Both the position numbers and the translations under genes were made by a program. Positions 4,169 to 21,627 of a stretch of 64,000 bases of DNA are shown here, in pieces. Source of the stretch: Geminocystis sp. NIES-3708 (lineage in GTDB: Bacteria > Cyanobacteriota > Cyanobacteriia > Cyanobacteriales > Cyanobacteriaceae); assembly GCF_001548095.1 (NCBI RefSeq), contig NZ_AP014815.1:2417656-2481655 (forward strand). The letters are read 5' to 3'. Each line of letters begins with the position of its first letter. Positions within the stretch are counted from its first letter, which is position 1. The notes beneath the pieces are model-generated. The model searched no databases. It was given only the letters and a program-made list of their open reading frames with translations, and had not been told where the DNA came from.

Positions 4169-5503
4169 TTAAATAGAAAAAAAATTACTATATTTTATAA
4201 ATAGTTGATGCCAAAATGATTTTGGTAAAACTTTCCTACCAATCTCAAAACAAGTACTGACTATACTTAGTCTTAGATTTATCATAAATAATCTAAATAT
4301 ATGCGGTTTTCGTCCCTGAGTGCGTCCTACTAAGTCTGGGTGTACTGGTGGTAAACAAATTCTTTTGGGGATTTTTATAGGATAAGTAATTGTAGAGCGA
4401 TCGCTAAGTTCGAAAATTACATTCAGCCAACGCTGGTAGCTGATTTCTTCACTATAGTTTTCAGCTATTAATGATTGAGATGTTGTAGAACATTTCAACC
4501 AAAGTTGGGGATGATTGAGTAAGCGAACAATAGCATTGGCAGCCTGTTCAGGAGTATCATCCACTAATAGTCCAGATTCATTATTTTTAACCAGTTCAGG
4601 AATACCACTAGGAATTGACCGAACTATAGGAACGACTCCTATCGCCATCGCTTCAAGTAACGCAACTGGTAAACCTTCATAATCAGACATTAATAATATG
4701 ACCTGACATAAAGCAAGTCTAGATTGAACTGTCGATGATTCTAAGCGACCTAAGAAAATAATGCGATCGCCTAATCCACGCTCATTTACCCAATCACGAG
4801 ATCTATTAATTTCATCGCCATCACCAATTATCCAACATTCAATCCGTGGATCAAGACAACAGGCTTGAGACATCGCTGCCAAAACCAAGGAAATTCTTTT
4901 TTGTTCTTCAACCACTCTCCCACAAAAGACAACTCGAAATGGAGAATCAGAAAATAAAGCGGCATTTTCAAACATGGATACTCCGTAGGGAATGGTTATA
5001 GGTTGATGAGCTAACTCTTTCTGTATAGCTTTTTTACTTATGTAATCTGATACGCCTATCATCAAACCATTATTCGTTTCTGGTGCAACTGTTTCAGCAA
5101 AAGCCCAGTAAACTGGATCATCAGAATGAATGGCCATTGCCCAAGGCAATCCATAGGAACCTGCAATACCTGCTGTATGATATGTTGATTCAAGACATTG
5201 AGGCAGGAATACTCGAGGTTGATGGCGATTAATAAAAGCTAACATACTAGATATATCTTCTTCTATATAAGATGATTGCATAGCAATTTCAAAGGATATT
5301 CCAGCTTCTCTTAAAATATGCAATAGAGAGGATTCCTCGACATCTAAACCACCATGTATAAGGTAAACTATAATTGGTATCTCATTACTATGCAAATGCA
5401 ATAAAAATTTTTGTAACCAAGTTGTAACTCCACCAATGTCGTTTTTTTTGCTGTAGTGGGCAAATGCAATTAGGGAGGGCTTATGATAACTTGCAACAGT
5501 CAT
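4169..5503 (-). CDS. Glycosyltransferase family 4 (GT-B)
   Basis: The 444-residue protein has the GT-B layout. An acceptor-side N-terminal domain begins SLIAFAHYSKKNDIGGVTTW, and a nucleotide-sugar domain follows from about residue 188 (FRVVFCGRVVEEQKR). The GT4 signature Glu-x7-Glu is present as Glu276 and Glu284 in DYEGLPVALLEAMA, followed by PSGIPELV and NNESGLLVDD. It is a retaining transferase that probably extends the surface glycan; donor and acceptor are unknown. A C-terminal extension after about residue 380 ends in an amphipathic segment (FWHQLFIKYSNFFSI). The same tail type is seen in the remnant at 5556-5714, so a related gene once lay just upstream. It lies between the Wzx relic and that remnant. 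Confidence 0.88.
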   Translation of the reverse strand: MTVASYHKPSLIAFAHYSKKNDIGGVTTWLQKFLLHLHSNEIPIIVYLIHGGLDVEESSLLHILREAGISFEIAMQSSYIEEDISSMLAFINRHQPRVFLPQCLESTYHTAGIAGSYGLPWAMAIHSDDPVYWAFAETVAPETNNGLMIGVSDYISKKAIQKELAHQPITIPYGVSMFENAALFSDSPFRVVFCGRVVEEQKRISLVLAAMSQACCLDPRIECWIIGDGDEINRSRDWVNERGLGDRIIFLGRLESSTVQSRLALCQVILLMSDYEGLPVALLEAMAIGVVPIVRSIPSGIPELVKNNESGLLVDDTPEQAANAIVRLLNHPQLWLKCSTTSQSLIAENYSEEISYQRWLNVIFELSDRSTITYPIKIPKRICLPPVHPDLVGRTQGRKPHIFRLFMINLRLSIVSTCFEIGRKVLPKSFWHQLFIKYSNFFSI

Positions 5504-6660: not shown

Positions 6661-7941
6661 TCAATATTTTGAATGAAAATCATCGATCGTTTGTCTGTAA
6701 AAATCAACAAGCTGATTAATAACCTTTTCTGGTTGTAAATCCTGTATTCTCTGATATGCTTTTTCCCCTATTTCCAATCTTTTTTTTTCGGTTAAGTTTA
6801 ACACTTCCTTTATAACTCTTAACAGATCTTGAGAGTTATCATTTTCGCACAAAAAACCACTTACTCCATCTTCGATTAATTGTTCAAAACTTGTGCCATT
6901 TGTACCAATAACAATTCGTTTATGTCCCATAGCCTCAATACAGGTATTAGGAAAATTATCTATTCTAGATGGTAAAACCACAGCATTAGCATTAGCAACA
7001 ATTGGATAAAGATAATCGTGAGTTAACCTGTCAAAATGAATTACTCTGTCCTTATTTTCCCCTGCATTTTCTCTGATTTTATCCATCGTACTTTTTCCCT
7101 GAAATCCCATATAGTCTTTATCCTTTCCCACAAAAACAAAGAACAAATTTTCCTTAAAAGCCAACAAAGAATAAATTATTTCTGCAATTAATCCGCATCC
7201 CTTCATTATTCCAATTGTTCCAAAGAATAGTAAATATTGTTTACCTTCCAAATACTCTTTGTAAATACTATAATTTAGTGATTCAGTCTCAATGATAAAC
7301 GGTGTTTCGATAACCTCAACATTTTTTCTAACAATCTTTTCTATTGTTATTGCATTGAGTTTGCTAGGACAAAATAAAGCATCCGATAGTTTATTAGCCA
7401 AATCTTCTTGCTTTTCCATTAACCAAATATCGAGTGTTCTTTTTAATCCATAGGCATCATTCCATTGAGGCAAATATCCAGAAATACGAGTTACTTTAGG
7501 GACATTTTTTAGGTGGAATAGTCCAAGGGCAGCACAATTTGGATATTGAACAAGAGATATGGGATGTTCAATTTGTTTGAGTTTCTCTCTTAATTGCCAA
7601 CTCATTAAAACTTGGATAGTAGAGTGATACAGTTTTCCAAAAGTTATCCAATTCCAAAATCTAAATAGAGAATCATTGTACTTTCTAGAGTTAAATATTT
7701 CAAAAAATATCCCAGTGTAAACTCTAAATCTATGTACTTCAATACCTTTATGAATAAATACATCCTCATTTTCGTGAGAGAGAACGAAAACAATCGGTTT
7801 ATGTCCAAGTTTTTTTAACCCTAAGGCAGCTCTATGAACATAGTTAGATAGTCCACCATCAAAAAAGTCTTCAGTAACATACTCAGTTGTGACTAAAACA
7901 ATTGTTAAAATTGATTTATTATCTTCCATAACTAAATCCAT
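6661..7941 (-). CDS. Glycosyltransferase family 4 (GT-B)
   Basis: The 426-residue protein begins with LTIVLVTTEYVTEDFFDGGLSNYV, the GT-B opening strand and glycine loop. Its C-terminal domain holds LLFFGTIGIMKGCGLI and the donor-binding segment DNFPNTCIEAM (Asp328, Glu336), where the first acid of Glu-x7-Glu is Asp. GTSFEQLIEDGVSGFL completes the GT4 core. It starts six bases after the asnB stop codon and is surely co-transcribed with it. The tight coupling suggests that the two act on the same intermediate, for example an amidated uronic-acid or aminoacyl sugar; this is inference. An in-frame Met at residue 5 is an alternative start. Confidence 0.88.
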   Translation of the reverse strand: MDLVMEDNKSILTIVLVTTEYVTEDFFDGGLSNYVHRAALGLKKLGHKPIVFVLSHENEDVFIHKGIEVHRFRVYTGIFFEIFNSRKYNDSLFRFWNWITFGKLYHSTIQVLMSWQLREKLKQIEHPISLVQYPNCAALGLFHLKNVPKVTRISGYLPQWNDAYGLKRTLDIWLMEKQEDLANKLSDALFCPSKLNAITIEKIVRKNVEVIETPFIIETESLNYSIYKEYLEGKQYLLFFGTIGIMKGCGLIAEIIYSLLAFKENLFFVFVGKDKDYMGFQGKSTMDKIRENAGENKDRVIHFDRLTHDYLYPIVANANAVVLPSRIDNFPNTCIEAMGHKRIVIGTNGTSFEQLIEDGVSGFLCENDNSQDLLRVIKEVLNLTEKKRLEIGEKAYQRIQDLQPEKVINQLVDFYRQTIDDFHSKY

Positions 7942-7946
7942 AAATA

Positions 7947-9788
7947 TTAGATATTTTGATTAAGCCATTCATCCAGAACAAGAAGTAACCAAAGGGAATT
8001 AGTTTGTTCCTGTTCAATCATTTTCTTAATTGTTTCTGGACGGAAATATTCATATATTTTACACCCAGAATCTAGGAAACGCGCCTCTAATATTTTTCTA
8101 TAATTACCATCAGCAGACAAAAATTTTTCAATAGGAGGACTAAATCCCATCTTTCGACGATGTAAAAAATCATCAGAATAATAACGACTTAGTAATTTTT
8201 TAAGAAGTAGCTTTCCTTCCCAAATCCCTTGATCGTTTCTGCCAATATTAAAAGACTCAGGAATACTTCCTGCAAACTCAAATACCTTGGTATCAACAAT
8301 GGGTGTTCTTACTTCTAGTCCGTTCATCATACTCGCTATATCTACTTTTGTCAAAATACAAGAAGGCATATAAGTTTTGATGTCTAAATATTGAGCTTTT
8401 TGATTCCAATTATAATTACTAACTTTCTTGTATTCTTCTTCAAAAATATTTATCGGTTGATTAACGATAGAATTATGTTCCCTCCTCCATAATTCAAGGC
8501 GATCGTCAGAGGACATTTGAGTTATATGCCGAAACCAAGTTTGCAAGTCAGGAATACGATAGGGATAGTGATCTCGTTTCCAAAAGCGATAAAAAAAAGG
8601 ATGGGTTATTTTTTCCCATCGGGGCTTTTCTTCTTGATATTTATGTAGCCAATACATCCAATCAAGATAATTATTATAGCCAGCAAACAATTCATCGCCT
8701 CCATCCCCTGACAAAACCATTGTTACTTGTTGACGTGCCATTTTACTGACGTAATAGGTTGGAATTGCTGAACTGTCTCCAAAGGGTTCACCATAATGTT
8801 TAACTAATTTAGGTAAAAGCTCTTCTAGTGCTTCCAGTTTAACAATTTCTGTATGGTGGTCTGTTTTCCATCTCTGAGCTACAATTTCTGCATATTGAAG
8901 TTCATTAAAATCAGCTTCATCAAAACCAATACTGAAAGTTTTCACAGGTTGTTCTAATAATTGACTCATGTAGGCAACTATTGCACTTGAATCAACACCT
9001 CCTGAGAGAAACGCTCCGAAGGGAACATCAGATTCCAAATGTGCTTTGACTGATTCCTTGAAAACAAAGTCAAATTCTTCTAACCAATCTGCTTCATTTT
9101 TAGTGTTATTGGGCTTGAAGTCTAAATGCCAATATTGTTTGCTTTCGGAAATAGCACCGCCAAAGGTGATATTAATATAATGAGCTGGAAGTAATTTTTT
9201 GATCTGTTGAAATATGGTTTTTGGAGCTGGAATATATTTTAACCAAAGATATTGATCAATTGCTTGTAAATCTATATCTAAGTTAATTGAAAGTTGACGT
9301 AAAGCCTGAATTTCTGAAGCGAAGGCAAAAAAAGTATCGGTAAAAATATAATATAAAGGCTTAATTCCTAATGGATCACGAGCAATAAAAACTTTTTGAC
9401 GATTCAAATCAACAATGCCAAAGGCAAACATTCCGCGAAATCTTTGGACACAAGAATCGCCCCATTCTTCATAACTATGTACAATTACTTCTGTATCAGA
9501 ATTGGTTTTAAATCTATGACCTTTACTAACTAACTGTTGTCTTAGTTCTTGATAGTTATAAATTTCTCCATTAAATGTTATCCATATAGTTTCATCTTCA
9601 TTGCAAAGTGGTTGCCCTCCTGTATCTAAATCGATAATAGCTAATCTCCGATGACCAATCGCCACTTGTCCATTGATCCAGATCCCGTCGCCATCTGGAC
9701 CACGATGACTAAGGGAATTTGTCATTAATTGAATGTCTTGACGATTAGCTTTTTCTTGGAATTGAAGAATGCCAGTGATACCACACAT
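7947..9788 (-). CDS. asnB: Asparagine synthase (glutamine-hydrolysing) family protein
   Basis: The 613-residue, two-domain protein has the class II glutaminase N-terminus with catalytic Cys2 (MCGITGIL), SHRGPDGDG and NGEIYN. The C-terminal ATP-pyrophosphatase domain has the PP-loop FLSGGVDSSAI near 262-273, and LSGDGGDELFAGY follows. Full length and all key motifs are present, so it should move glutamine ammonia to an activated carboxylate. AsnB-type enzymes in sugar and natural-product clusters often amidate uronic acids or other acids instead of aspartate. Its place between three PhyH genes and a GT4 gene makes a tailoring role likely, but plain asparagine synthesis cannot be excluded. The next gene follows after five bases. 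Confidence 0.93.
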   Translation of the reverse strand: MCGITGILQFQEKANRQDIQLMTNSLSHRGPDGDGIWINGQVAIGHRRLAIIDLDTGGQPLCNEDETIWITFNGEIYNYQELRQQLVSKGHRFKTNSDTEVIVHSYEEWGDSCVQRFRGMFAFGIVDLNRQKVFIARDPLGIKPLYYIFTDTFFAFASEIQALRQLSINLDIDLQAIDQYLWLKYIPAPKTIFQQIKKLLPAHYINITFGGAISESKQYWHLDFKPNNTKNEADWLEEFDFVFKESVKAHLESDVPFGAFLSGGVDSSAIVAYMSQLLEQPVKTFSIGFDEADFNELQYAEIVAQRWKTDHHTEIVKLEALEELLPKLVKHYGEPFGDSSAIPTYYVSKMARQQVTMVLSGDGGDELFAGYNNYLDWMYWLHKYQEEKPRWEKITHPFFYRFWKRDHYPYRIPDLQTWFRHITQMSSDDRLELWRREHNSIVNQPINIFEEEYKKVSNYNWNQKAQYLDIKTYMPSCILTKVDIASMMNGLEVRTPIVDTKVFEFAGSIPESFNIGRNDQGIWEGKLLLKKLLSRYYSDDFLHRRKMGFSPPIEKFLSADGNYRKILEARFLDSGCKIYEYFRPETIKKMIEQEQTNSLWLLLVLDEWLNQNI

Positions 9789-9856: not shown

Positions 9857-10732
9857 CTAACCAAATAATTTTGAAATAAAATCTTTTGCCCACCTCAACG
9901 GTTTCCCATTTTGATGACGGTCTTTGTCCATTTTATTAACAAAATCTTCTATAGTTATTGGCTCAAATTCACGATCGACAAAACCCAAGCTAGTTAAACC
10001 TTCTGGTCTAACTCCCCAGATGTTCGAGGTATAAAACTCATCATCAACCTCAAAAACTTCTAACTTCGAGGCATCCTTTTCAGTGTCACAATAATAATAA
10101 CGCAAGGTACTATCGATTGAAATCATTAACCCAGCTAGAACCACTCGCTCGTTGGTAGTTTGATTCGGTGGCGAACCATGGAAAATATTTGTATCATAAA
10201 TCACGGCTTCTCCTGCTTTAATCGACAATTCCGTTAAATACTTTTCTTCAATTGTTGGCAGAAGATGTTTATAAGGAAAATCACTGTACCCTCCTGATGG
10301 TTTGTTATTCAAGTTGTGACTACCTTTAACTACTTTAAGACAACCATTATAATTATTAACATCAATCAGAGGACACCAAACCCCCACAGAATTAAATCTA
10401 TTTATATCTACAAATGACCAATCATAGTGTAATCCTATTGTGCTATCTAATCTTTGGGCGTGTTTGACAAGAAAACTCCAATGACATAGACGATATGATC
10501 TCAAAAAATGAGCCATTTTTTGAGCAAGAATTTTCTTGATACTACTATTAATAAATTGACGATAATGAATATCATTACTCATCATAGTAGGGACAAAACC
10601 ACTACTAAAATTGTGGGTTAGAGAATTATAGATATCTTGTATGCTAACTACTTCCTGATCAGCTAAAAATTTAACGACAGCATAGCCGTCTTTTTTTAGA
10701 TCTAAAATGATCTTTTTCTCATCAACTATCAC
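9857..10732 (-). CDS. PhyH-family Fe(II)/2OG oxygenase, copy A
   Basis: The 291-residue protein has the phytanoyl-CoA dioxygenase pattern: His102 and Asp104 (GLHYDWSFVD), CPLIDVNNYNGCLKVVKGSH, GEAVIYDTNIFHGS with distal His185, and Arg196 in NERVVLAG. PhyH enzymes hydroxylate CoA-, carrier- or glycan-bound substrates. The GTG start at 10732 is backed by a strong GGGAGG eight bases upstream and an in-frame stop before it. It is a tandem paralogue of the gene at 11232-12125. The last ~47 residues are nearly identical between the two, while the N-terminal parts differ far more, which suggests gene conversion. It sits 68 bases upstream of asnB. The substrate is unknown. Confidence 0.88.
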   Translation of the reverse strand: MIVDEKKIILDLKKDGYAVVKFLADQEVVSIQDIYNSLTHNFSSGFVPTMMSNDIHYRQFINSSIKKILAQKMAHFLRSYRLCHWSFLVKHAQRLDSTIGLHYDWSFVDINRFNSVGVWCPLIDVNNYNGCLKVVKGSHNLNNKPSGGYSDFPYKHLLPTIEEKYLTELSIKAGEAVIYDTNIFHGSPPNQTTNERVVLAGLMISIDSTLRYYYCDTEKDASKLEVFEVDDEFYTSNIWGVRPEGLTSLGFVDREFEPITIEDFVNKMDKDRHQNGKPLRWAKDFISKLFG

Positions 10733-11043
10733 GAATTTTTACCTCCCAGTGAGTTAATAATTTTAAAGTTCTGAGGAAAAGATCTATGCAAACGTGCGAG
10801 GGAATTCATGAATTGCCTTTACGGTAAAAACAGAGATTCAAAGCTATTCTGCGTAGATCTTAATTTTTCTCAAGAATAGATTTGGCTTCTGATTTCGTCG
10901 CCATTTTTGAGTAGTTCCACAAACTCTTCTTCTGAAATTAGCCGATTTTGATTTTTGACAAATCCTTCACTCTTCCATTCAGGTTTGCGATCGTCATATA
11001 ATTCGCTGACATTGCTTGTAAGAAAGAATTCACTGTCTGCATG
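9877..11043 (-). repeat. Tandem segmental duplication, copy A (about 1.2 kb)
   Basis: This block matches 11257-12445 in gene order and sequence: a whole PhyH gene, its leader, and the 3' end of a third PhyH gene. The shared leader includes a TTTACGGTAAAA-type stretch near 10820. Identity is highest across the last ~190 bases of the PhyH coding part and lower elsewhere. Boundaries are by eye and may shift by tens of bases. Confidence 0.8.
10870..11042 (-). pseudogene. 3' remnant of a PhyH gene
   Basis: The minus frame encodes ADSEFFLTSNVSELYDDRKP.., then GFVKNQNRLISEEEF and ends EIRSQIYS at a stop (10870-10872). This is the C-terminal ~55 residues of the protein encoded at 12268-13125, with substitutions but no frameshift. 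The rest of that gene is missing here, and 11043-11231 holds nothing I recognise. The remnant marks the far end of the duplicated block. Confidence 0.85.
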
Positions 11044-11231
11044 AAATTAGCTCCAAACAACTTAAATAAATTTAAATTTATTGCTTTAATTTTAGATATA
11101 GCCCTTTCGTAGTCAAGCGCGATATAGATGATTCCTACTTCACACTAAAAATGCTACCAAACTTTACAGTATCTCACAATTATAGTCAAGCCTAATAGTA
11201 GATAGGTCGACAAGACAACCGAACAAACTTC

Positions 11232-12125
11232 TTATTTATCCCAGTTTATATAGTCAGATAATTTTGAAATGAAATCTTTTGCCCACCTCAACGGTTTCCC
11301 ATTTTGATGACCGTCTTTGTCCATTTTATTAACAAAATCTTCTATAGTTATTGGCTCAAATTCACGATCGACAAAACCCAAGCTAGTTAAACCTTCTGGT
11401 CTAACTCCCCAGATGTGCGAGGTATAAAACTCATCATCAACCTCAAAAACTTCTATCTTCGAGTCATTTTTTTCAGTGTCACAATGATAATAACGCATGG
11501 TACTATTGATAGGGATCATTATGCCTGATAAAACCACTCGTTCGGTCTTAGTTTGATTTGGTGGTGAACAATGAAAAACCCTAGTATCAAAAATTACAGC
11601 TTCCCCCGCTTTAATCGGCAACTCCGTTAAATACTTATCTTCAATTATTGATAAAAGATGTTTATAAGGAAAATCCATAAATACTCCCCATGGTTTATTA
11701 TTCAAGTTGTGACTACCTTTAACTACTTTAAGACAACCATTTGAATTATCAACATCAATAAGCGGACAAAAAATATTCAAGGAATTAAATTTTTCTTTAT
11801 CCACAAATGACCAATCATAGTGTAGCCCTAGTGTGCTATCTAATCTTTGGGCTTGCTTGACAAGAAAACTCCAATGACAAAGACGATATGATTTGAAAAA
11901 ATGGCTCATTTTTTGTGCCAGAATTTTCTTGAGCCTACTATTAATTAATTGACGATAATGAATATCATTACTTATCATAGTAGGTGCAAAACCACTATTA
12001 AAATTGTGGGATAGAGAATCATAGAAATGTTGTATATCAATTATTTCCTGATAGTCTAAAAATTCAACTATAGTATACCCATCTCTTTTTATATCTAAAA
12101 TGATCTTCTCTTCATCAAATATCAC
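11232..12125 (-). CDS. PhyH-family Fe(II)/2OG oxygenase, copy B
   Basis: This 297-residue paralogue of the gene at 9857-10732 keeps the same ligands (His102, Asp104 in GLHYDWSFVD; His185; Arg196 in TERVVLSG). The frame is open to 12182, but the GTG at 12123-12125 is chosen because it aligns exactly with the copy A start and has the same AGAGGT Shine-Dalgarno region; the extra upstream codons are leader read in frame after a one-base loss. The distal-His segment reads FDTRVFHCSPP against YDTNIFHGSPP in copy A, and the central surface differs (WGVFMDFPYKHL against SGGYSDFPYKHL). The substrate may therefore have drifted. It is the middle of three PhyH genes in a row; the substrate is unknown. 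Confidence 0.88.
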   Translation of the reverse strand: MIFDEEKIILDIKRDGYTIVEFLDYQEIIDIQHFYDSLSHNFNSGFAPTMISNDIHYRQLINSRLKKILAQKMSHFFKSYRLCHWSFLVKQAQRLDSTLGLHYDWSFVDKEKFNSLNIFCPLIDVDNSNGCLKVVKGSHNLNNKPWGVFMDFPYKHLLSIIEDKYLTELPIKAGEAVIFDTRVFHCSPPNQTKTERVVLSGIMIPINSTMRYYHCDTEKNDSKIEVFEVDDEFYTSHIWGVRPEGLTSLGFVDREFEPITIEDFVNKMDKDGHQNGKPLRWAKDFISKLSDYINWDK

Positions 12126-12445
12126 GGATTTTACCTCTATTGAGTGAATAATTTTAAAATTTTGAAGATAAAACTTACGCAAGTGTCAAAAATGTGACGA
12201 AATTCACGAATTACCCTTACGGTAAAATCAGACATTCAAAGCAGTTTTGCATAACTCTGAATTATTTTCAAGAATAGATTTGGCTTCTAATTTCTTCACC
12301 ATTTTTGAGAAGTTTCGCAAACTCTTCCTCTGTAATCAAACGATTTTGATTTTTGACAAAACCTACACTCTTCCAGTCAGGTTTGCGATCGCCATACAAG
12401 TCGCTGACATGACTTGTGAGGAAGAATTCACTGTCCGCATGAATC
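11257..12445 (-). repeat. Tandem segmental duplication, copy B (about 1.2 kb)
   Basis: This partner of 9877-11043 holds the copy B PhyH gene and the 3' end of the PhyH gene at 12268. Because that third gene is intact here, this is probably the parental block and 9877-11043 the daughter. Confidence 0.8.
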
Positions 12446-13125
12446 AATTCAAATCTCTCCTCACATTCTTTAAAAAAGAATGTTGGGGTAGCATCACTGG
12501 GAATACAGAGTATTTGAATCGCAATGCGAGACTGATCAGAGTCATTCTTTCGAGACCAATGAATGAGTCCATCATCAAAAATGATCGCTTCTCCTGCCTT
12601 CATTGGGAACGGTTTGAGGTATTTCTCAATCAATGCCTCTTGGAAGTTTACAAAATAGGGGGGACTATTTGGTGCTTCGATATGGGGCAGGATTTTATGA
12701 CTACCCGCAACAACCTGAATAGCACCGTTTGATTCAATAACATCCACTAGCGGACACCAAATAGTCACTGTAGTGTCGTTAATATCAGCGATCGCTGGCC
12801 AGTTTTGATGAATTTGAAATTCCCCTGTATGGGGAGGTTTGACATAAAAATTGCAGTTGAGAATTTCGTATCCTACAAGGTATTCATTTACAAAAGGCGT
12901 AAATATCCCTCTAATTAGATTGTAAGTTTGGCGTTTATATTCAAGATTTGGGTCTAGGAATGAACAATGGTAAGAGTTTTTTGGTGCAAAATTGTCATAT
13001 GGACGCAACTTAGCTATTTCTTCTAAGAGATACATAACTTGCGTTGAAGATAACATTGGAACTTGTACATAGCCTTTTTTCAAAAAGCTTTTCTGTAAAT
13101 CATTGTCTTGAAATATTTGTCGCAT
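12268..13125 (-). CDS. PhyH-family oxygenase with altered HxD motif (HQN)
   Basis: The 285-residue protein has the PhyH fold signals: VTIWCPLVDVIESNGAIQVV, AGSHKILPH, GEAIIFDDGLIHWS (distal His189) and SRIAIQ with Arg200. The first ligand motif is IHQNWPAIAD: His106 is present but the expected Asp at 108 is Asn. Loss of this carboxylate occurs in non-heme iron halogenases (Gly or Ala) and in inactive members; Asn is unusual and could weaken or change iron binding. The C-terminus (LYGDRKPDWKSVGFVKNQ) recurs in the remnant at 10870-11042. It lies 93 bases downstream of the E1-lipoyl-thioesterase gene and probably works on the product or intermediate of that enzyme. Family firm, activity uncertain. 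Confidence 0.85.
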   Translation of the reverse strand: MRQIFQDNDLQKSFLKKGYVQVPMLSSTQVMYLLEEIAKLRPYDNFAPKNSYHCSFLDPNLEYKRQTYNLIRGIFTPFVNEYLVGYEILNCNFYVKPPHTGEFQIHQNWPAIADINDTTVTIWCPLVDVIESNGAIQVVAGSHKILPHIEAPNSPPYFVNFQEALIEKYLKPFPMKAGEAIIFDDGLIHWSRKNDSDQSRIAIQILCIPSDATPTFFFKECEERFELIHADSEFFLTSHVSDLYGDRKPDWKSVGFVKNQNRLITEEEFAKLLKNGEEIRSQIYS

Positions 13126-13218: not shown

Positions 13219-16200
13219 TTAATCAAAATGCTCTAAACAAATATTAATTTTTTCAGCGAGCTTCTCCGCATTAGGATCGAACAAAATAGAGAGATGATTA
13301 CCTTCAATTTGATGCATTTCAAATCCACCGCAAACAAGACTCTTCCAACTATTTGGTTGTGTAGGATTAAAGTAATTGCCCTCAATCATCTTTTCAGTAG
13401 CTGAAAAATATATGATTTTGCCATCATATAATTGAGGCTTGTAGTTACCTAGAGCTTTAATATTTGCCTTCCACATTCTAAATCTAGTAAGATTTTCAAC
13501 AGACAATAGATATTCTTCTGTATCATAAGTCCAAGGTGGTGGAAATTTTCCTTGTTGAGAAATTGTATCTGCTAAGAACCCAATATCCTTCTCCAAAAGA
13601 AATGGCTTGGGACTATCTACCATCATAATAGGTAATACTTCTTGACCGTGTTTAGTCATTTTTTGTGCAATTTCAAAAGCAATACTTCCGCCCATACAAA
13701 CACCCCCAATTAGATAAGGTCCTTTAGAAACCACTTTCTGAATTTCCTGAATATAGTAATTTGCGATATCCTCTATCTTTGTATAAGGGGAATTTTCCCC
13801 ATTAATTCCTAACGCTTGCATTCCATAAATTGGTCGTTCTGGATCGATGTACTTGATAAAATCTAAGGTGACATTTGGATGATCACCAGTTACCCCATGT
13901 ACATAGAAAAATGGTATTTTATGACCGGTTGACTTCAGAGGCACAATAGCTATAGAGTCTAAATTGTTTTTGTCTTGAGAAGACAAACTTACTACTCTCT
14001 CAATTTTTGATGGTGGTGTTAAAGTGGGCAGAATAACTTTGTGGCTAAAGCTCATCGGATAGATTTTTTTTTCGGAGGCTTCCGATGAAACCTTTTTTCG
14101 CTCCTTCTGTTTAAATACTGGTGTCCCTATTTCTTCACGTGTGACTGGTTTAGGTGCAACTAAATGGTTGCGAGAAAGGCTGACTTCTAGCAATGGAGAG
14201 CCAACTAAGATTTTTTGATTTTCACCTACAAAAATTTTTTCTATAATGCCATTGACAGGACTATCAAAATCAAGGACTGCTTTTGAAGTTTCTAACAATG
14301 CTACCGTTTGCCCCTCAGAAATTTCTTCTCCTACCTGAACACATAACTCTAAAACCTTTAAAACTTCATCCGAAGGTGCCACTCCAACAGCCTCAATCAT
14401 AAAACTACCTTCTTGAGATTTTTCGGGTGTAAAAATCCAATCTATCTCAAGATCTAAAAGATCGACAGCAGATTCAAGTATCCGCTTATATGATGGTAAA
14501 ACTTCCAATTGATTAGAAAAATTAAATGGAATATAGGTGTCAGGTCTTGTGACTCGTTTCATACGGACAGAGGAGTTAAGTGCCTCGGCAACAGTAGCCA
14601 TAATTTCACCTCCCATGCCACAACTGTGATTATCCTCATGGGTAACAATTAATTTACCAGTCTTACGAACTGAAGCAATTACCGTCTCGGAATCCCAAGG
14701 TGATAGCCAACGCAGATCGATTACCTCTGATTGGATACCCACAATCGCTAGTGCTTCTGCCGCTTGGCTACATTTCTGTACTAAGTTACCATAAGCAACA
14801 AACGTAATGTCAGATCCAGTGCGGACAATACGAGCCTTACCGATAGGAACAAATTGTTTATGAACATCTGACGAAGTGGTGGCGGTTAAATCAACCAAAT
14901 TTAAGCAACTTTTCGGATAGAAGAATAGGGTAGGACGATGGGAATCAAAAGCGGCGTTTAGAGTTCCGGCCGCATCTCCTGCCGTTGAACACATAACTAC
15001 ATCAATACCAGGTGTATGAACTGCTATAGATTCTAAAGACTGAGAATGAAATGGGCCTAGTCCTGGACGATACCCACCACAACTAATCATAACGATGACT
15101 GGACATTCCCACTCCCCATCGGTACGCCAATAGATACTCCCTAACTCAGAAATAATTTGGTTGAAAGCCAAAGGCATAAAATCAGCAAACTGCAAAAAAG
15201 CTACTGGACGACCACCAGCAAGTGCTCTACCGATACAAGTGCCAATAATAGTTGATTCACTCAATGGAGAGTTGATGATCCGTCCTGGAAACTCTGTACT
15301 CAATCCTTTCGTTAAACCAAATACATCTCCTTTTGGATCTTCGATGTCTTCCCCATATAAAGTAATCTGTGGTTCTCTTTTCATCCGATGCCAAAATACC
15401 TTGCAGATAGCTTCACGCATGGTTAGTCGATTTGCACTGTTATACCCTGTATATTCACTAGAAGGATCAGACAGTCCATGAGACAAAGTTTTTTTAGCAT
15501 GGAAAATTGCTTGGGGATCACAGCTAGATTGAGATTTCTTGGCTGCATTTTTGACTGATTTTTGAATATCAGCATCAATTTTTTCTAGTTCCTTAGTTGT
15601 TACCCCCAATTGCTGTAGATAATTTCTCAAGTTTTTAATCGGGTCGGCTTCTGCTCGTATCCGATCGATTTCCGAAACCTGACGATAAAGGGTTTGATCA
15701 TCAGCATTAGTGTGACTATTCAATCGTTCAAGAGTCATAACTATTAGGGCTGGTTTCCTTGTGTGACGAATGCTAGAGATAATTTTTTCAAAAGTCTCAT
15801 AACAAGCAATGCAATCCCATCCTTTGACACGATGAATTGGCAATCCATAAAAAGTCTCTGGAGTTTGGTCGGGCAATTTATAAAAAGTCTTCTTGTCGGT
15901 GACAGTAGAGATAGAGAAACGATTGTCCTCAATTAAAAACAAAACTGGTAATGAAAACCTTACAGCTTCGCCAATAGCTTCAATTACTTCCCCTTGTTGC
16001 GTTGTACCATCACCTAAAGCACAGACTACTAAAGGATGATTAGGGTTTTCTTTGATCTGTGCTGCTATACCGACAGCCTGTAAAGCATTATTCCCGACAA
16101 GTACTACCATATTTACAATGTTGGTATTGCGATCACTCATAAAAGCACTCATTTGACGTCCGCGTGAATGGGAATCATTTTTAGCAAACAGGCTATGAAA

Positions 16201-16476
16201 AAACATCTCAGGAGAGATACCACGAGCGAGCATCAGAGCTTTATCTCGATAGTGTAAATGTAGGTAATCTGCGGAAATGAGATGAGGGTTTAGCATCGCA
16301 ACCGCCTCATGCCCACCTCCAGAAACATGAAAAAATGCTTCACCTTGGGTGACGTATTGCTCTTCTATATAATCAATTTCTCTTGCTGTTATCATATTTT
16401 GATAAAGATTGAGAAATTGATTCAACAAGTCCGGAGACAATGGAGAAGGATTAGAATGAAGAATAGAATCTGACAT
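13219..16476 (-). CDS. 2-oxoacid dehydrogenase E1-alpha/E1-beta/lipoyl/thioesterase fusion
   Basis: The 1,085-residue protein joins four domains. Residues ~25-330 are E1-alpha: HYRDKALMLARGISPE, SRGRQMSAF and the thiamine diphosphate motif from GDG (155-157) to Asn185. Residues ~350-675 are E1-beta, with SPLSESTIIG (Glu407) and GPFHSQSLE. Residues ~692-766 are a lipoyl domain with the attachment lysine Lys732 (ETSKAVLDFDSP). Residues ~843-1085 are a type I thioesterase (PFFYVHGVTGDHPN; GGVCMGG with Cys927; Asp954; His1061). The usual Ser nucleophile is Cys. No E2 catalytic domain or E3 is present. It should decarboxylate a 2-oxo acid, load the acyl group on its own lipoyl arm, then pass or release it by the thioesterase. 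It is flanked by Wzt and three PhyH genes. The domain calls are strong; the reaction is inferred. Confidence 0.92.
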   Translation of the reverse strand: MSDSILHSNPSPLSPDLLNQFLNLYQNMITAREIDYIEEQYVTQGEAFFHVSGGGHEAVAMLNPHLISADYLHLHYRDKALMLARGISPEMFFHSLFAKNDSHSRGRQMSAFMSDRNTNIVNMVVLVGNNALQAVGIAAQIKENPNHPLVVCALGDGTTQQGEVIEAIGEAVRFSLPVLFLIEDNRFSISTVTDKKTFYKLPDQTPETFYGLPIHRVKGWDCIACYETFEKIISSIRHTRKPALIVMTLERLNSHTNADDQTLYRQVSEIDRIRAEADPIKNLRNYLQQLGVTTKELEKIDADIQKSVKNAAKKSQSSCDPQAIFHAKKTLSHGLSDPSSEYTGYNSANRLTMREAICKVFWHRMKREPQITLYGEDIEDPKGDVFGLTKGLSTEFPGRIINSPLSESTIIGTCIGRALAGGRPVAFLQFADFMPLAFNQIISELGSIYWRTDGEWECPVIVMISCGGYRPGLGPFHSQSLESIAVHTPGIDVVMCSTAGDAAGTLNAAFDSHRPTLFFYPKSCLNLVDLTATTSSDVHKQFVPIGKARIVRTGSDITFVAYGNLVQKCSQAAEALAIVGIQSEVIDLRWLSPWDSETVIASVRKTGKLIVTHEDNHSCGMGGEIMATVAEALNSSVRMKRVTRPDTYIPFNFSNQLEVLPSYKRILESAVDLLDLEIDWIFTPEKSQEGSFMIEAVGVAPSDEVLKVLELCVQVGEEISEGQTVALLETSKAVLDFDSPVNGIIEKIFVGENQKILVGSPLLEVSLSRNHLVAPKPVTREEIGTPVFKQKERKKVSSEASEKKIYPMSFSHKVILPTLTPPSKIERVVSLSSQDKNNLDSIAIVPLKSTGHKIPFFYVHGVTGDHPNVTLDFIKYIDPERPIYGMQALGINGENSPYTKIEDIANYYIQEIQKVVSKGPYLIGGVCMGGSIAFEIAQKMTKHGQEVLPIMMVDSPKPFLLEKDIGFLADTISQQGKFPPPWTYDTEEYLLSVENLTRFRMWKANIKALGNYKPQLYDGKIIYFSATEKMIEGNYFNPTQPNSWKSLVCGGFEMHQIEGNHLSILFDPNAEKLAEKINICLEHFD

Positions 16477-16620: not shown

Positions 16621-17997
16621 TTATATTTTCTGCTTATTTGGCTTGACTTGGATTTGGCAATCACCGAGTAAGTTACAAATTCCAAAATGCGAGTGTTCAT
16701 CATAGCTGTAACGATGAAGAAGATTAAACGCCACAATTCCGTCATAAACATCGCCTACTTGTAAGTGGCTAATAAACTCATCTTTTAAAACTACGTTTAA
16801 GGAGGCATAATCATCCTTAGACATCGTACCGAATGCAATATTAAGAACATATTCGTTCGGCTCTATACTCAAGGTAATATGGCGACTGAAGCGAATGCAA
16901 TCGCCCTTATTAACCTGGCTAGGAACATTAATTTTGTGCTGAAATGAAGTTTTGTTATGAATTATTACATTATACTTATTAGTAATGCTCACACCAACAA
17001 TCGGCACACCTATATCTTGCTTAATCAGGAATTCACAATAGATATAGGATTCTTCACCTTGTAAAAAATTTAAGGTCGGCTCACCTTTAGAATTACACAT
17101 AGCATAGCGAGTTAGTTGAGCATAACTAGCATCGGGAAAATCCACAGGAATGAAAAATTCATCATTAGGCCAAGAAAAATTATCGGAACTATTAAATGAT
17201 GGTAGAGATGATTTTTGGCTAGAAGTATCTGTTTTTATGCCCAGAGATTTCTTCTGTATAAATCCATGCTTGAGCTGATGAAACTGCCAAATACCTTCCT
17301 TCGGAAGACCTTGATAGATTTTTTTGCCTTGATGTAATAATAAGACTTCTTGACAATATTGCTGCACAGCACCTAACTCATGAGTAACTAAAATAATTGT
17401 TGTTTTTTTAGCAATAAGTTCTTCGAGAAGCTGATAACATTTTTGTTTGAAAAAAATATCGCCAACTGCTAAAACCTCATCTAATATTAAGATATCACTC
17501 TCCAAGAAAGCGAAGAGGGAGAAAGCTAGTCTTATTTTCATTCCAGATGAATATAATTTCATCGGCCGATCAAAAAATTCTTCCAACTCAGAAAACTGAG
17601 CGATTTCTTCCATTCTTTCTTGAACATAACCTTCTGGAAAACCTAACAATTCGGCACTATAAATAGCATTTGCCCTACCACTAAGTTCCGGATTAAAATC
17701 AGTCCCTAATTCCAATAGTGAAAGAACTTTACCATTTAATTCATAGGTTCCTTCTGTTGATCGTAGTACTCCTGTAATGATTTTAAGTAATGTACTTTTA
17801 CCGGCACCATTTTCGCCAATAATACCAATAAAATCACCTCGACGCACTTCAAAGGAAATATCTTTAATTGACCAATATGGTTGATGATAGCTGCGCTTGC
17901 TTATACTGAGCCATTCCCTAGCCCTATTCCAAGGATTATCATAAATCTTAAAACATTTACCTAGGTTTTCTACGCGCAAAATAATGTCATCATTCAT
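16621..17997 (-). CDS. wzt: ABC transporter ATPase Wzt with C-terminal carbohydrate-binding domain
   Basis: The 458-residue protein has Walker A GENGAGKST (61-69), the signature region YSSGMKIRLAFS (149-160), Walker B ILILDE (169-174) and switch His206. The tail beyond ~290 matches the Wzt C-terminal domain that in O-antigen exporters recognises the modified end of the glycan (GVSITNKYNVIIHNKT). It overlaps the Wzm stop by four bases, as expected for a translationally coupled pair. Such transporters export a lipid-linked polymer or glycolipid built on the cytoplasmic face. The terminal modification it reads could be made by the neighbouring oxygenases or the acyl-forming fusion enzyme, but this is inference. 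Function of the pair is confident; cargo unknown. Confidence 0.93.
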   Translation of the reverse strand: MNDDIILRVENLGKCFKIYDNPWNRAREWLSISKRSYHQPYWSIKDISFEVRRGDFIGIIGENGAGKSTLLKIITGVLRSTEGTYELNGKVLSLLELGTDFNPELSGRANAIYSAELLGFPEGYVQERMEEIAQFSELEEFFDRPMKLYSSGMKIRLAFSLFAFLESDILILDEVLAVGDIFFKQKCYQLLEELIAKKTTIILVTHELGAVQQYCQEVLLLHQGKKIYQGLPKEGIWQFHQLKHGFIQKKSLGIKTDTSSQKSSLPSFNSSDNFSWPNDEFFIPVDFPDASYAQLTRYAMCNSKGEPTLNFLQGEESYIYCEFLIKQDIGVPIVGVSITNKYNVIIHNKTSFQHKINVPSQVNKGDCIRFSRHITLSIEPNEYVLNIAFGTMSKDDYASLNVVLKDEFISHLQVGDVYDGIVAFNLLHRYSYDEHSHFGICNLLGDCQIQVKPNKQKI

Positions 17998-18800
17998 ATC
18001 CTGTCTCTAACTTCACTCTGGAGTTTGTCATTTATATTAGCCCCTAACCAGACAAAAGAAGCTATCCAGCCTATCATTATCACCCAAATATTCAGATCTG
18101 GAATTCTATCTTCTAAAACTAAATCACGAAATGATTTAATGAAAGCATAGGGAGGATTAGCATAGAGCCAAGGTAAGAAGCGATCGGGAATGATTGAGGT
18201 TGGATAATAAATCGGTATTGTCCAAGACCACAGAGGAATAATAAATTGTAAAATTTGTTTAATGTCAGGGAAGAGAATTTGTAGATTTGCTAAAGCTAAA
18301 CTCATCCCAAAAGCTAATCCTTGAAAAAGTAGCCCCACAATTGGTAAAAACAAAATATTCCAGCCTAAATCTTTGCCAAACAGAGGAGTGATCAGTATTA
18401 TTAAGCCTAAATAAATATAAACAAGGAACAAGGAAGCTAATGTAACTTTACCGACAAAAATTTCTGAAGGGATTGCTAAACGTCTTAAATAGATAGCATT
18501 TTTAAAAAAAGCATCACTACCTTGAACAATAGTTTCTGTAAAACCACGCCAGGGTAATAAAGCCGCCATAAGATATAACGAATAAGAATTACCCTCGATT
18601 TTATTAGGGATCAAAAGTGAGAAAACGATCGTATAAATAATGATTTCAAATAGTGGGCTAATCACATTCCAAAGTATGCCTATTCCAGTACCAGCATAGC
18701 GATGACGCAATTCGTACCAAGCGTTGTAAAACATATACCGCCTGTACTTATAAAAATTCAGAAAAAAGCTATTTCTTTGATTATTACTCATGTATTTCAT
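17994..18800 (-). CDS. wzm: ABC-2 type permease Wzm
   Basis: The 268-residue membrane protein starts with a cytoplasmic YRRYMFYNAWYELRHRYAG segment. About six hydrophobic spans follow, beginning with GILWNVISPLFEIIIYTIVF and SLYLMAALLPWRGF. It ends in the PIYYPTSIIPDRFLPWLYANPPYAFIKSFRD motif common to polysaccharide-export permeases. With the adjoining ATPase it forms the inner-membrane channel for a lipid-linked glycan. The start at 18800 is used, but an ATG three codons in (KYMSNN) is also possible. It is the first gene of the minus-strand run Wzm-Wzt-E1 fusion-PhyH x3-AsnB-GT4. Immediately upstream lies a sulfotransferase remnant followed by IS DNA, so the operon's original promoter may be gone. 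Confidence 0.93.
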   Translation of the reverse strand: MKYMSNNQRNSFFLNFYKYRRYMFYNAWYELRHRYAGTGIGILWNVISPLFEIIIYTIVFSLLIPNKIEGNSYSLYLMAALLPWRGFTETIVQGSDAFFKNAIYLRRLAIPSEIFVGKVTLASLFLVYIYLGLIILITPLFGKDLGWNILFLPIVGLLFQGLAFGMSLALANLQILFPDIKQILQFIIPLWSWTIPIYYPTSIIPDRFLPWLYANPPYAFIKSFRDLVLEDRIPDLNIWVIMIGWIASFVWLGANINDKLQSEVRDRI

Positions 18801-18809
18801 TAAATTGTC

Positions 18810-19060
18810 TCACTCCCAGTCAAATTCCATACCTAAATATTTTTCTAATTCCTGATTATAAGCACGATAAAATGCTTTTAGCTTAGAGCGTAAATCATCG
18901 GAGATAGGGGAGTAAGAACCAATATTACTATTTCTGTAAAAACTAAGTTGATGATAAGATAAACCCAAAAATTGATAAACGCTTTTCATTGTACCTGATG
19001 GATCGCTTAATAAATCTCACTCTTGAGGAATAGAAACTGCTCTTTTGGTAAAATAGATAA
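18810..19060 (-). pseudogene. 3' remnant of a sulfotransferase
   Basis: The minus frame gives DLLSDPSGTMKSVYQFLGL, then SDDLRSKLKAFYRAYNQELE and KYLGMEFDWE before a stop at 18810-18812. This is the typical C-terminus of PAPS-dependent sulfotransferases (DLL.DP...M..VYQFLGL; FY..YN..L...LG..F.W). A TGA sits just before DLLSDP, and the PAPS-binding N-terminus is absent. The cluster therefore once carried a sulfation step, now lost. The left limit at about 19060 is approximate; from there to ~19226 I see nothing recognisable. Confidence 0.75.
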
Positions 19061-19226
19061 CGATTCTTTTAGATAAAAGACATATAGACCAAACAATAGA
19101 TGGTGTAGTGATAGACAAGGATTATAACCCACATTCCGCATATTTTAATAGAATACTAAAAACAACACTAGAGATTATCTCTTGATTATAGTAAGTGACA
19201 AAAAGTCTATGTTTTAGTGCGATAGT

Positions 19227-20345: not shown

Positions 20346-21627
20346 CTGAGGGGGCGACAGAACATTCAGAATGCAGATTGGATAAGGGAAATAGCCCTCA
20401 TACCTTGACGATAATAGGACTGTTTCTGAGGAAATAAAGAGGTTAACTTATCTAATTGTTCTTGAAAAAAGCAGATTTCACTTAGCCATTTTATCCCATT
20501 TAAACCAATAGAAAAATCACTATATCTTTTATATCTTCTTCTTTTTTCTGTGGGTCTAACTAGATATTCACTTATTCCTTTTCTTTTAATTTCTTCTCCT
20601 ATAAATGTTGAATAACTATAGGATAATGTTATCAGTATAATTAAAGAAATTAGTCGTTCATTTTCAAGTTTTGTACTTTCTAAGTTATAACCTCCTAATT
20701 TAAAATCTCTAAACATTTCTTCAATACCCATTCTTTTGGAATAAGCAGAGATTGTTTCCGACATACTTTCTAAATTTGTGAGAATAAACCATGGCTGTTT
20801 ACTCGATTTATGTCTATAGTTTTTCTTCCATTTTGCTGCTAAATTAATTCCTGAGAATCCCTTGGTTTTTGTAACTTTTATTCCTCGATAATATACGGAG
20901 AATCCTGGAGATAAACCTAATTCACTCAATCGAAACCATATATCAGTTTCTAACTCCACATATTCACTCTTTTTTAAACGTAGAGATAAATAAACCTGTT
21001 TCTCTACTGATAACCATTTTGCTAAATCCACAGAGCAAAATTCTCTATCTCCTAAAACGATTATTTTATATTCAATTAATAAATTAATACTTGCTTCTAA
21101 TACTTGTTTTTGTTCTGATAAATTACTACTTCCTTTTTTATTTAATCAGATAAAATATACAGGGATAGCTCCTTGATGATGAACTAAACTTACCATCAAT
21201 ATATTAATGTTTTGCCACTGTGTTCTATCCATGACTAAATAAATTACTTTGTTTGATTCCCATTGGTTCATAATCCATGATTTTAAAATCGGAAACCATA
21301 TGGTTTCAACTTTCCAATTTTTCAGACTTAAAAATCTTTGTAACTTTTTAATTCTACTTCTTAATTTAATCGGATAAGGAAAAAGTTTTGCCATTTCTTC
21401 TAACCTAACAGTTTTAAGATTTTGAAGTAAATTAACTAAAAGACAAAGAGTTAAATATTGAGGTAAATTAAACTGTTTTTTTAAATACTCCTGATAAAAT
21501 TGGGGAAGTTGAAACATCTTTTTCTATAGTAATTAATATAAAAACTAAAAACATCTTATTTTTATCCAGATTACCAGCTTCAATCTCTTATACCATCGTC
21601 TGTTTACCTTCATTGTCGCCCCCTCAG
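20346..21627 (-). mobile_element. IS4-family insertion sequence, copy 1
   Basis: A 1,282-bp element bounded by perfect 14-base inverted ends CTGAGGGGGCGACA and flanked by the 9-base direct repeat GTCAAAAAA (20337-20345 and 21628-21636). As far as can be read it is identical to the copy at 44063-45344 in opposite orientation. It carries one transposase gene split by a TGA. It separates PhyH/cyclase/UbiA from Wzm/Wzt and so divides the proposed island. Confidence 0.93.
20366..21517 (-). pseudogene. IS4-family transposase with in-frame TGA
   Basis: The two open stretches (21146-21517 and 20366-21031) are one reading frame separated by an in-frame TGA right after GAIPVYFI. The first catalytic Asp is in VMDRTQWQN, the second in VLGDREFCS (inside the gap, still in frame). 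The IS4 signature Y-x2-R-x3-E-x6-K is exact in YSKRMGIEEMFRDFK. Relatives are expected to have a sense codon, probably Trp, at the TGA. The same TGA is present in copy 2. A complete protein would need readthrough or a partner in trans. Confidence 0.88.

What the first reader, a model, noticed from the sequence alone, without database searches (positions are those of the whole stretch)
13219..16476. Single-chain E1-alpha/E1-beta/lipoyl/thioesterase enzyme
Four domains are visible: thiamine-dependent E1-alpha and E1-beta, a lipoyl domain (Lys732) and a type I thioesterase. There is no E2 acyltransferase core and no E3. Known 2-oxoacid dehydrogenases pass the acyl group to CoA through E2. Here the acyl-dihydrolipoyl arm is on the same chain as a thioesterase, so the product could be a free acid, ester, lactone or an acyl-sugar. 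I do not recall this architecture as characterised.
Basis: partly seen in the sequence, partly recalled or inferred. Interest (0 to 1): 0.8.

Follow-up and report, generated by a model that had tools for sequence, protein, structure and literature searches.

The report
Lipoyl-fed thioesterase in glycan gene cluster
A cyanobacterium carries one protein that seems to break down an acid, hold the resulting acyl group on its own swinging lipoyl arm and hand it to a built-in thioesterase, probably to decorate an exported sugar polymer; enzymes of this type normally need separate partners and coenzyme A.

Summary
Residues 1 to about 795 belong to a family in which the same E1alpha-E1beta-lipoyl module is fused to ketoacyl synthase III (KASIII): 32 of 337 Verrucomicrobia genomes match strongly and three cyanobacteria carry it. 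The tree nests this protein inside that family, so a thioesterase replaced KASIII. I saw the thioesterase form in this genome only; two relatives are cut at contig ends. The nearest thioesterases are also Cys-type and end AMP-ligase/ACP proteins; one lies beside a Wzt homologue. In a sister genome the otherwise collinear cluster has a methyltransferase in this gene's slot beside wzt. Best reading: a 2-oxo acid's acyl group passes to in-cis lipoyl, then Cys927, then a glycan acceptor, possibly as export cap. Substrate, acceptor and transfer versus hydrolysis are unproven. New variant of a known kind.

The parts
13219..16476 (-). Whole gene: E1alpha-E1beta-lipoyl-thioesterase chain, 1085 aa
15514..16401 (-). 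E1-alpha domain (aa 26-321); Asp156, Asn185, His255 kept
   Evidence: PF00676 2e-43; residues checked against 29 relatives, roles recalled
14503..15426 (-). E1-beta domain (aa 351-658); Glu407, His477 kept
   Evidence: PF02779 and PF02780; residues matched in 29 of 29 relatives, roles recalled
14185..14355 (-). Lipoyl domain (aa 708-764); Lys732 codon at 14281-14283
   Evidence: PF00364 5.8e-11; Lys732 and Glu729 matched in 29 of 29 relatives
13243..13854 (-). Cys-type thioesterase (aa 875-1078): Cys927 codon 13696-13698, Asp954 13615-13617, His1061 13294-13296
   Evidence: PF00975 2.9e-20; motifs
16621..17997 (-). wzt: ABC exporter ATPase with C-terminal Wzt_C domain
   Evidence: PF00005, PF14524; 84.7% to G003, 54.8% to G041 homologue
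17994..18800 (-). wzm: ABC-2 exporter membrane part
   Evidence: PF01061; 88.1% to G003
12268..13125 (-). PhyH3, shared with G003 and G041
   Evidence: PF05721; 90% in G003, found in 3 of 100 genomes at E <= 1e-15, own included
9857..12182 (-). PhyH1 (9857-10732) and PhyH2 (11232-12182), 79% identical to each other, absent from this stretch of G003
7947..9788 (-). AsnB-like amidotransferase
   Evidence: PF00733; 91.4% to G003
6661..7941 (-). Glycosyltransferase
   Evidence: PF00534; 84.4% to G003
4169..5503 (-). Glycosyltransferase
   Evidence: PF00534; 83.3% to G003

Best explanation
It is a self-contained acyl-transfer enzyme. (1) The fused E1alpha/E1beta unit uses thiamine diphosphate to decarboxylate a 2-oxo acid and reductively acylates the lipoyl group on Lys732 of the same chain. 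(2) The acyl-dihydrolipoyl arm reaches the C-terminal thioesterase, where Cys927 (with Asp954 and His1061) takes the acyl group directly, without E2, CoA or an acyl carrier protein. (3) The thioesterase passes it to an acceptor made by the cluster, most likely a hydroxyl or amino group of the glycan exported by the neighbouring Wzm/Wzt. The cell's general E3 re-oxidises the lipoyl group. Shown by sequence: the domains, the kept active-site residues, the domain swap and the gene slot. Inferred: lipoylation, the 2-oxo acid substrate, direct hand-over and the glycan acceptor. Rough confidence by step: (1) 0.85; (2) 0.75; transfer rather than hydrolysis in (3) 0.55; the acyl group being the cap read by Wzt 0.25.
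For: Domains and absence of E2/E3. E1 and lipoyl residues matched in 29 of 29 KASIII-form relatives, except Asp156 in 27 of 29. The relatives end in KASIII, whose Cys, His and Asn are kept in 28 of 28 complete rows, so in them too the domain after lipoyl takes acyl groups on a Cys. The thioesterase replaced KASIII just after the lipoyl domain. Host has lipoamide dehydrogenase and lipoyl synthase above cut-off. The two thioesterases that match best over the whole domain in 60 relatives are Cys-type and follow an AMP-ligase/ACP pair; the other six fetched have Ser. One of them (L137) lies beside a Wzt homologue in a cluster with PhyH, UbiA and toroid homologues of window genes. A PhyH3 search rang in only 3 of 100 genomes: own, G003 and that same G041. 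In G003 the slot beside wzt holds a methyltransferase; terminal methyl caps are read by Wzt in a published case (PMC9445017, passages).
Against: No biochemistry. The thioesterase form was seen in one genome only. The slot region is unstable (PhyH1/PhyH2 also extra, a PhyH3 fragment at 10870-11045, a decayed sulfotransferase), so methyltransferase and E1-thioesterase may share a site without sharing a role. The weaker conservation of the Wzt C-terminal half (68-86% against 90-98% in the ATPase part) may be ordinary. KASIII relatives show no shared neighbours that point to glycans. Cys-type thioesterases of this Asp position have no characterised case in the paper read. The attempted fold of the thioesterase failed.
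Confidence: 0.45

Rival explanations
1. The thioesterase is a hydrolase: the enzyme turns a 2-oxo acid into a free carboxylic acid, with lipoyl and the cell's E3 as electron sink, as a CoA-free bypass or to supply a small acid to the cluster.
For: Most thioesterase domains can hydrolyse (family knowledge); no acceptor is identified; step 3 has no direct evidence.
Against: Cys nucleophile shared with the two nearest thioesterases; placement among glycan genes beside wzt in a slot otherwise holding a methyltransferase.
Confidence: 0.25
2. Acyl transfer as in the best explanation, but to an acceptor other than the glycan (a lipid, a small metabolite, a free ACP or CoA).
For: The window also has UbiA and toroid genes further along; the KASIII relatives would pass acyl groups into chain building, not to sugars.
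Against: The genes conserved around the slot in G003 are glycan genes and the exporter.
Confidence: 0.13
3. The E1 part works alone as a carboligase that adds a two-carbon or acyl unit to a keto-sugar; lipoyl and thioesterase are carried along.
For: Sugar cluster; thiamine-dependent ligations to keto-sugars are known (recalled).
Against: Lipoyl Lys732 and its Glu729 are kept, as is a full Cys-Asp-His set.
Confidence: 0.08
4. Chimaera or relic: a recent recombination joined the thioesterase to an E1-lipoyl piece and the product has no settled role, or the junction is an assembly error.
For: Thioesterase form in one genome only; different G+C on the two sides of the junction; unstable region.
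Against: Intact ORF with the checked catalytic residues kept, at 69% identity to its nearest relative; the neighbouring sulfotransferase, by contrast, is decayed.
Confidence: 0.09

Closest known systems
Single-chain E1alpha-E1beta-lipoyl-KASIII proteins (found here in Verrucomicrobia and three cyanobacteria; no publication located)
   Same: Same family for residues 1 to about 795 (up to 69% identity, tree support 100/100); lipoyl Lys and E1 residues kept; no E2
   Different: C-terminal domain is KASIII instead of a thioesterase
E1/E2-like loading of carrier proteins: pepteridine locus, pristinamycin IIA, naphthyridinomycin NapB/NapD (as named in PMC5384830 and PMC7570522, passages)
   Same: E1-type chemistry feeding a biosynthetic acceptor instead of CoA; E3 absent from the locus in the pepteridine case
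   Different: Those use an E2-like part (pepteridine) and a carrier protein; here neither. NapB/NapD sequences were not held, so not compared
Streptomyces loci L017-L019: E1alpha-beta chain beside a PKS/NRPS
   Same: Fused E1alpha-beta, about 35-37% identity
   Different: Lipoyl is on the synthase, followed by E2, ACP and KS (Pfam on L017 only)
2-oxo acid dehydrogenase complexes (PDH, BCKDH); E1alpha-beta-lipoyl-E2 single chains of Verrucomicrobia (L125)
   Same: E1 and lipoyl domains and residues
   Different: They have the E2 acyltransferase domain; here absent
Cyanobacterial AMP-ligase/ACP/Cys-thioesterase proteins (L137, L138)
   Same: Nearest thioesterases over the whole domain (35% and 32%), Cys nucleophile; L137 beside a Wzt homologue
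   Different: Acyl group activated by an AMP-ligase and carried by ACP, not E1/lipoyl (Pfam on L138)
AB3403 synthetase thioesterase (PDB 4zxh)
   Same: Best solved relative of the thioesterase; Cys aligned with Cys927; Asp after beta-6
   Different: NRPS; called uncharacterised in PMC11298585

Membership tests
2-oxo acid dehydrogenase complex | Thiamine-dependent E1 with catalytic residues | tested here: met
   PF00676, PF02779, PF02780; residues
2-oxo acid dehydrogenase complex | Lipoyl domain with modifiable Lys | tested here: met
   PF00364, Lys732 in ETSKA; modification itself not testable
2-oxo acid dehydrogenase complex | E2 acyltransferase domain passing acyl to CoA | tested here: not met
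   No PF00198 hit, although the same scan finds it in L125
E1alpha-E1beta-lipoyl-KASIII family | E1alpha-E1beta-lipoyl part within the clade | tested here: met
   Clade of 28 KASIII-form rows plus this protein, 100/100; with L116 and L117 100/99
E1alpha-E1beta-lipoyl-KASIII family | C-terminal KASIII | tested here: not met
   Thioesterase instead; identity to L117 6-24% beyond aa 800
Type I thioesterase of synthases | PF00975 domain with nucleophile, Asp and His | tested here: met
   Cys927, Asp954, His1061; geometry not shown, model failed
Type I thioesterase of synthases | Serine nucleophile (the common form) | tested here: not met
   Cys927; the less common Cys form is described in PMC11298585
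SulM/ObiF strained-ring thioesterases | Asp on the loop after beta-7, and Gln-Cys-Asn in SulM | tested here: not met
   Asp954 27 residues after Cys927, aligned with the AB3403 Asp; motif is Val-Cys-Met
Carrier-protein loading by E1/E2 (NapB/NapD, pepteridine type) | E2-like part and carrier protein | tested here: not met
   No PF00198 and no PP-binding hit on the chain; no such gene among the window ORFs scanned by Pfam from 574 to 31848
Cap-dependent ABC-exported glycan locus | Wzm/Wzt with C-terminal carbohydrate-binding domain | tested here: met
   PF14524 on Wzt, PF01061 on Wzm
Cap-dependent ABC-exported glycan locus | This enzyme adds the cap | not testable with these tools
   Only the exchange with a methyltransferase gene in G003 supports it

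The most novel reading that the evidence does not exclude
A CoA-free and ACP-free acyltransferase with lipoyl as the acyl carrier of a tailoring reaction: a 2-oxo acid is decarboxylated, its acyl group rides the in-cis lipoyl arm to a Cys thioesterase and is placed on the end of a cyanobacterial glycan as an acyl cap, in place of the methyl cap of a sister strain, and is read by the Wzt cap-binding domain. The E1alpha-E1beta-lipoyl module would be a portable acyl-loading cassette, paired in nature with KASIII, E2 or thioesterase.
Probability: 0.22. Interest if true: 0.85.

Novelty: new variant of a known kind. Interest (0 to 1): 0.62.

Why it matters
Acyl groups for biosynthesis are normally carried on CoA or a carrier protein. 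A chain that goes straight from a 2-oxo acid to an acyl-enzyme by way of lipoyl would add a further carrier to biosynthetic acyl transfer. Related E1-lipoyl modules end in KASIII, E2 or a thioesterase in different bacteria, so the idea of an exchangeable loading cassette can be tested with single-chain proteins. The KASIII form, in about a tenth of the Verrucomicrobia genomes sampled (32 of 337), suggests a CoA-independent way to start acyl chains. The gene slot beside wzt raises a testable question about non-methyl caps in ABC-dependent glycan export.

Tried and rejected
Rejected or disfavoured. Frame error or gene join: unbroken frame here and in the relatives. Ordinary fused E1 as in Bacteroidota: nine sampled chains of 694-740 aa are a separate clade at 34-36% identity; other Bacteroidota hits were not opened. 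Lactone/lactam-forming thioesterase: Asp position. KASIII fusion as a replacement of housekeeping FabH in the relatives: all 19 fusion genomes tested keep a separate FabH above the cut-off. Shared operon partners of the KASIII form: none in more than 7 of 28 loci compared; those scanned are a PEP-using enzyme (7 loci), an ammonium transporter (5) and a penicillin-binding protein (5).

Led nowhere. Single-sequence AlphaFold of the thioesterase part (mean pLDDT 36.5); no fold search was run. Viral-contig scan: one weak locus, L122. Paper searches: searches gave 0 papers; searches gave none on this architecture by listing. The NapB/NapD paper is not held. The E1 substrate was not resolved; in one KASIII relative (L124) a Glu/Leu/Phe/Val dehydrogenase gene lies divergently next to the fusion gene, one case only.

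Limits of the counts. The cyanobacterial draws (386 phylum, 388 order, 388 class, own genome in each) overlap, used E limits of 1e-60, 1e-60 and 1e-120, and are no census. Of 19 other places I opened 11 (ORF lengths only); of the 6 and 4, all. Two of the last, L145 and L147, are cut at contig ends, so their C-terminal domain is unknown. Of the 32 strong Verrucomicrobia genomes, 26 C-termini were aligned: 25 complete KASIII, one (L064) cut. The tree used this protein, 29 rows labelled KASIII form (L064 included) and 27 sampled others; three long branches and unlike letter make-up were flagged by the program.
Full report
What is there. The ORF at window:13219-16476 (minus strand) is a single reading frame of 1085 aa. 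Pfam finds E1_dh (26-321), Transket_pyr (351-525), Transketolase_C (546-658), Biotin_lipoyl (708-764) and Thioesterase (875-1078), all above the curated cut-offs, and no E2 catalytic or E3 domain. The lipoyl lysine is Lys732 in ETSKA; the thioesterase motif is G-V-Cys927-M-G, with Asp954 27 residues on and His1061 near the end. The best solved relative of the thioesterase, 4zxh, also has C aligned with Cys927 and D aligned with Asp954. The host is very probably a cyanobacterium: a Yfr1 RNA in the window (38.6 bits against a gathering score of 38), an slr1306-family protein (444.9 bits, under its cut-off of 490), and a magnesium chelatase subunit ChlI/BchI beside the cluster in a genome of the same genus. 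'Cyanobacterial' below rests on this. The host also has separate E1-alpha-like and E1-beta-like genes, a lipoamide dehydrogenase and two lipoyl synthases above their cut-offs, and one FabH.

A family behind it. The genome-contig scan gave three loci; the only one matching beyond E1-beta is a Verrucomicrobia MAG protein, L005 (55% in the best segment; 54% in alignment A1), whose C-terminal domain is KASIII. With A1 as query, 32 of 337 Verrucomicrobia genomes (L005's own included) matched at E <= 2.1e-239, 29 of them in frames of 1106-1210 aa and three in frames of 744, 1339 and 1521 aa. Two cyanobacteria of the host's order (of 388 genomes) and one more diverged one of its class (L146; of 388) have the same form. 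KASIII Cys, His and Asn are kept in 28 of 29 aligned rows; L064 is cut before them. Window residues Asn185, His255, Glu407, His477, Glu729 and Lys732 are matched in 29 of 29 and Asp156 in 27 of 29 (residue roles recalled). A second Verrucomicrobia group (E about 1e-130) ends in E2 where scanned (Pfam on L125 only), so an E2 here would have been seen.

The thioesterase is a domain swap. In a maximum-likelihood tree of the E1 part (57 rows) this protein joins the two cyanobacterial KASIII fusions (100/99) inside a clade of itself and 28 KASIII-form rows (100/100). Identity to L117 is 38-84% per 50 residues over aa 51-750, 34% over 751-800 and 6-24% beyond. So KASIII was replaced by a thioesterase just after the lipoyl domain. 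Among the hits opened, only this genome has the thioesterase form; L145 and L147 are cut at contig ends and cannot be judged. In plasmids, 787 records matched the E1-lipoyl part; the 30 listed are at most 38% identical. In the three Streptomyces loci opened, a fused E1alpha-beta gene lies beside an NRPS-annotated synthase, which in L017 begins lipoyl-E2-ACP-KS. The Cupriavidus place opened is unannotated and its frame has stops.

Where the thioesterase points. In 60 relatives the best matches over the whole thioesterase domain were in G041 (35%) and G047 (32%). Both proteins (L137, L138) have Cys as nucleophile, while the six other thioesterases fetched have Ser. L138 is AMP-binding/PP-binding/thioesterase by Pfam; L137 reads the same by sequence. 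L137 lies near a Wzt homologue 55% identical to the window's, with a sulfotransferase between them, and some 8 kb further on is a giant ORF with PhyH parts and homologues of window 22876-23925 (toroid, 56%) and 23986-25083 (UbiA, 49%); L138 lies about 3.4 kb from UbiA and PhyH homologues. A search with PhyH3 rang in 3 of 100 genomes: own, G003 and G041. These recurrences suggest that Cys thioesterases of this kind serve one type of glycan cluster, with an ACP arm as donor there and a lipoyl arm here.

The gene slot. G003, of the same genus, carries the cluster at 83-91% protein identity over seven genes (GT, WelO5-like, GT, AsnB-like, PhyH3, wzt, wzm) and 87-89% DNA identity in the four long aligned blocks. 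Between PhyH3 and wzt it has a 291-aa methyltransferase where the window has the E1-thioesterase gene. The window also has PhyH1 and PhyH2, absent there, and only a C-terminal remnant, in two frames, of a sulfotransferase that is intact in G003. In a published system Wzt's carbohydrate-binding domain reads a methylated end sugar, and cap attachment stops elongation and licenses export (PMC9445017, abstract and passages). The window Wzt has the Wzt_C domain; against G003 its C-terminal part is 68-86% identical per 50 residues and its ATPase part 90-98%. That is consistent with a changed cap but not diagnostic.

Mechanism. I propose that E1 decarboxylates a 2-oxo acid and acylates the in-cis lipoyl arm, the arm delivers the acyl group to Cys927, and the thioesterase passes it to a glycan acceptor; E3 re-oxidises the arm. 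The first step rests on kept residues and family knowledge. Direct hand-over rests on the lack of an E2 or carrier on the chain and on the KASIII relatives. The acceptor rests on gene context alone. Hydrolysis to a free acid is the main rival. Strained-ring chemistry is disfavoured: SulM and ObiF have Asp after beta-7, whereas AB3403, the only other Cys case among the structures compared there, has it after beta-6 (PMC11298585, passages), as the alignment suggests here.

Known and new. Feeding of biosynthetic carriers by E1/E2-like enzymes is known (PMC5384830 and PMC7570522, passages). I found no paper on E1-lipoyl-thioesterase or E1-lipoyl-KASIII chains in a library that lacks most subscription journals. 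I rate it a new variant of a known kind, with a bold, unproven reading as a lipoyl-carried acyl-cap enzyme.

Noticed in passing
L041, L047-L070, L112, L116, L117, L146: Single-chain E1alpha-E1beta-lipoyl-KASIII proteins, seemingly undescribed; a separate FabH is kept in all 19 fusion genomes tested, so the fused KASIII has an extra role.
   Followed up: partly
window 18813-19126 (-): Two-frame C-terminal remnant of a sulfotransferase gene (75-81% to the intact one in G003, L161:17849-19087), near a partial transposase ORF at 20366-21031.
   Followed up: partly
window 12268-13125 (-): PhyH3 reads H-Q-N where PhyH1 and PhyH2 read H-Y-D (usual metal motif HxD, recalled); the N is kept in the G003 orthologue.
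   Followed up: partly
window 5737-6582 (+): WelO5-like protein (PF22814, 2.6e-51) with H-R-E at the likely metal site, in G003 too; halogenases of the type have Gly there (recalled), so a hydroxylase is more likely.
   Followed up: partly
L162:15584-20000 (+): Giant ORF in G041 (1472 aa to the end of the stretch) with PhyH, UbiA, toroid, PhyH and TPR parts; the window has UbiA, toroid and PhyH as separate genes.
   Followed up: no
window 10870-11045 (-): Fragment matching the 3' end of the G003 PhyH3 gene (83.5% DNA identity), a relic of duplication or recombination.
   Followed up: no
L164 (just upstream of the window): Two further Wzm/Wzt-like pairs and more UbiA, toroid and PhyH homologues lie in the 19.7 kb upstream of the window.
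   Followed up: no
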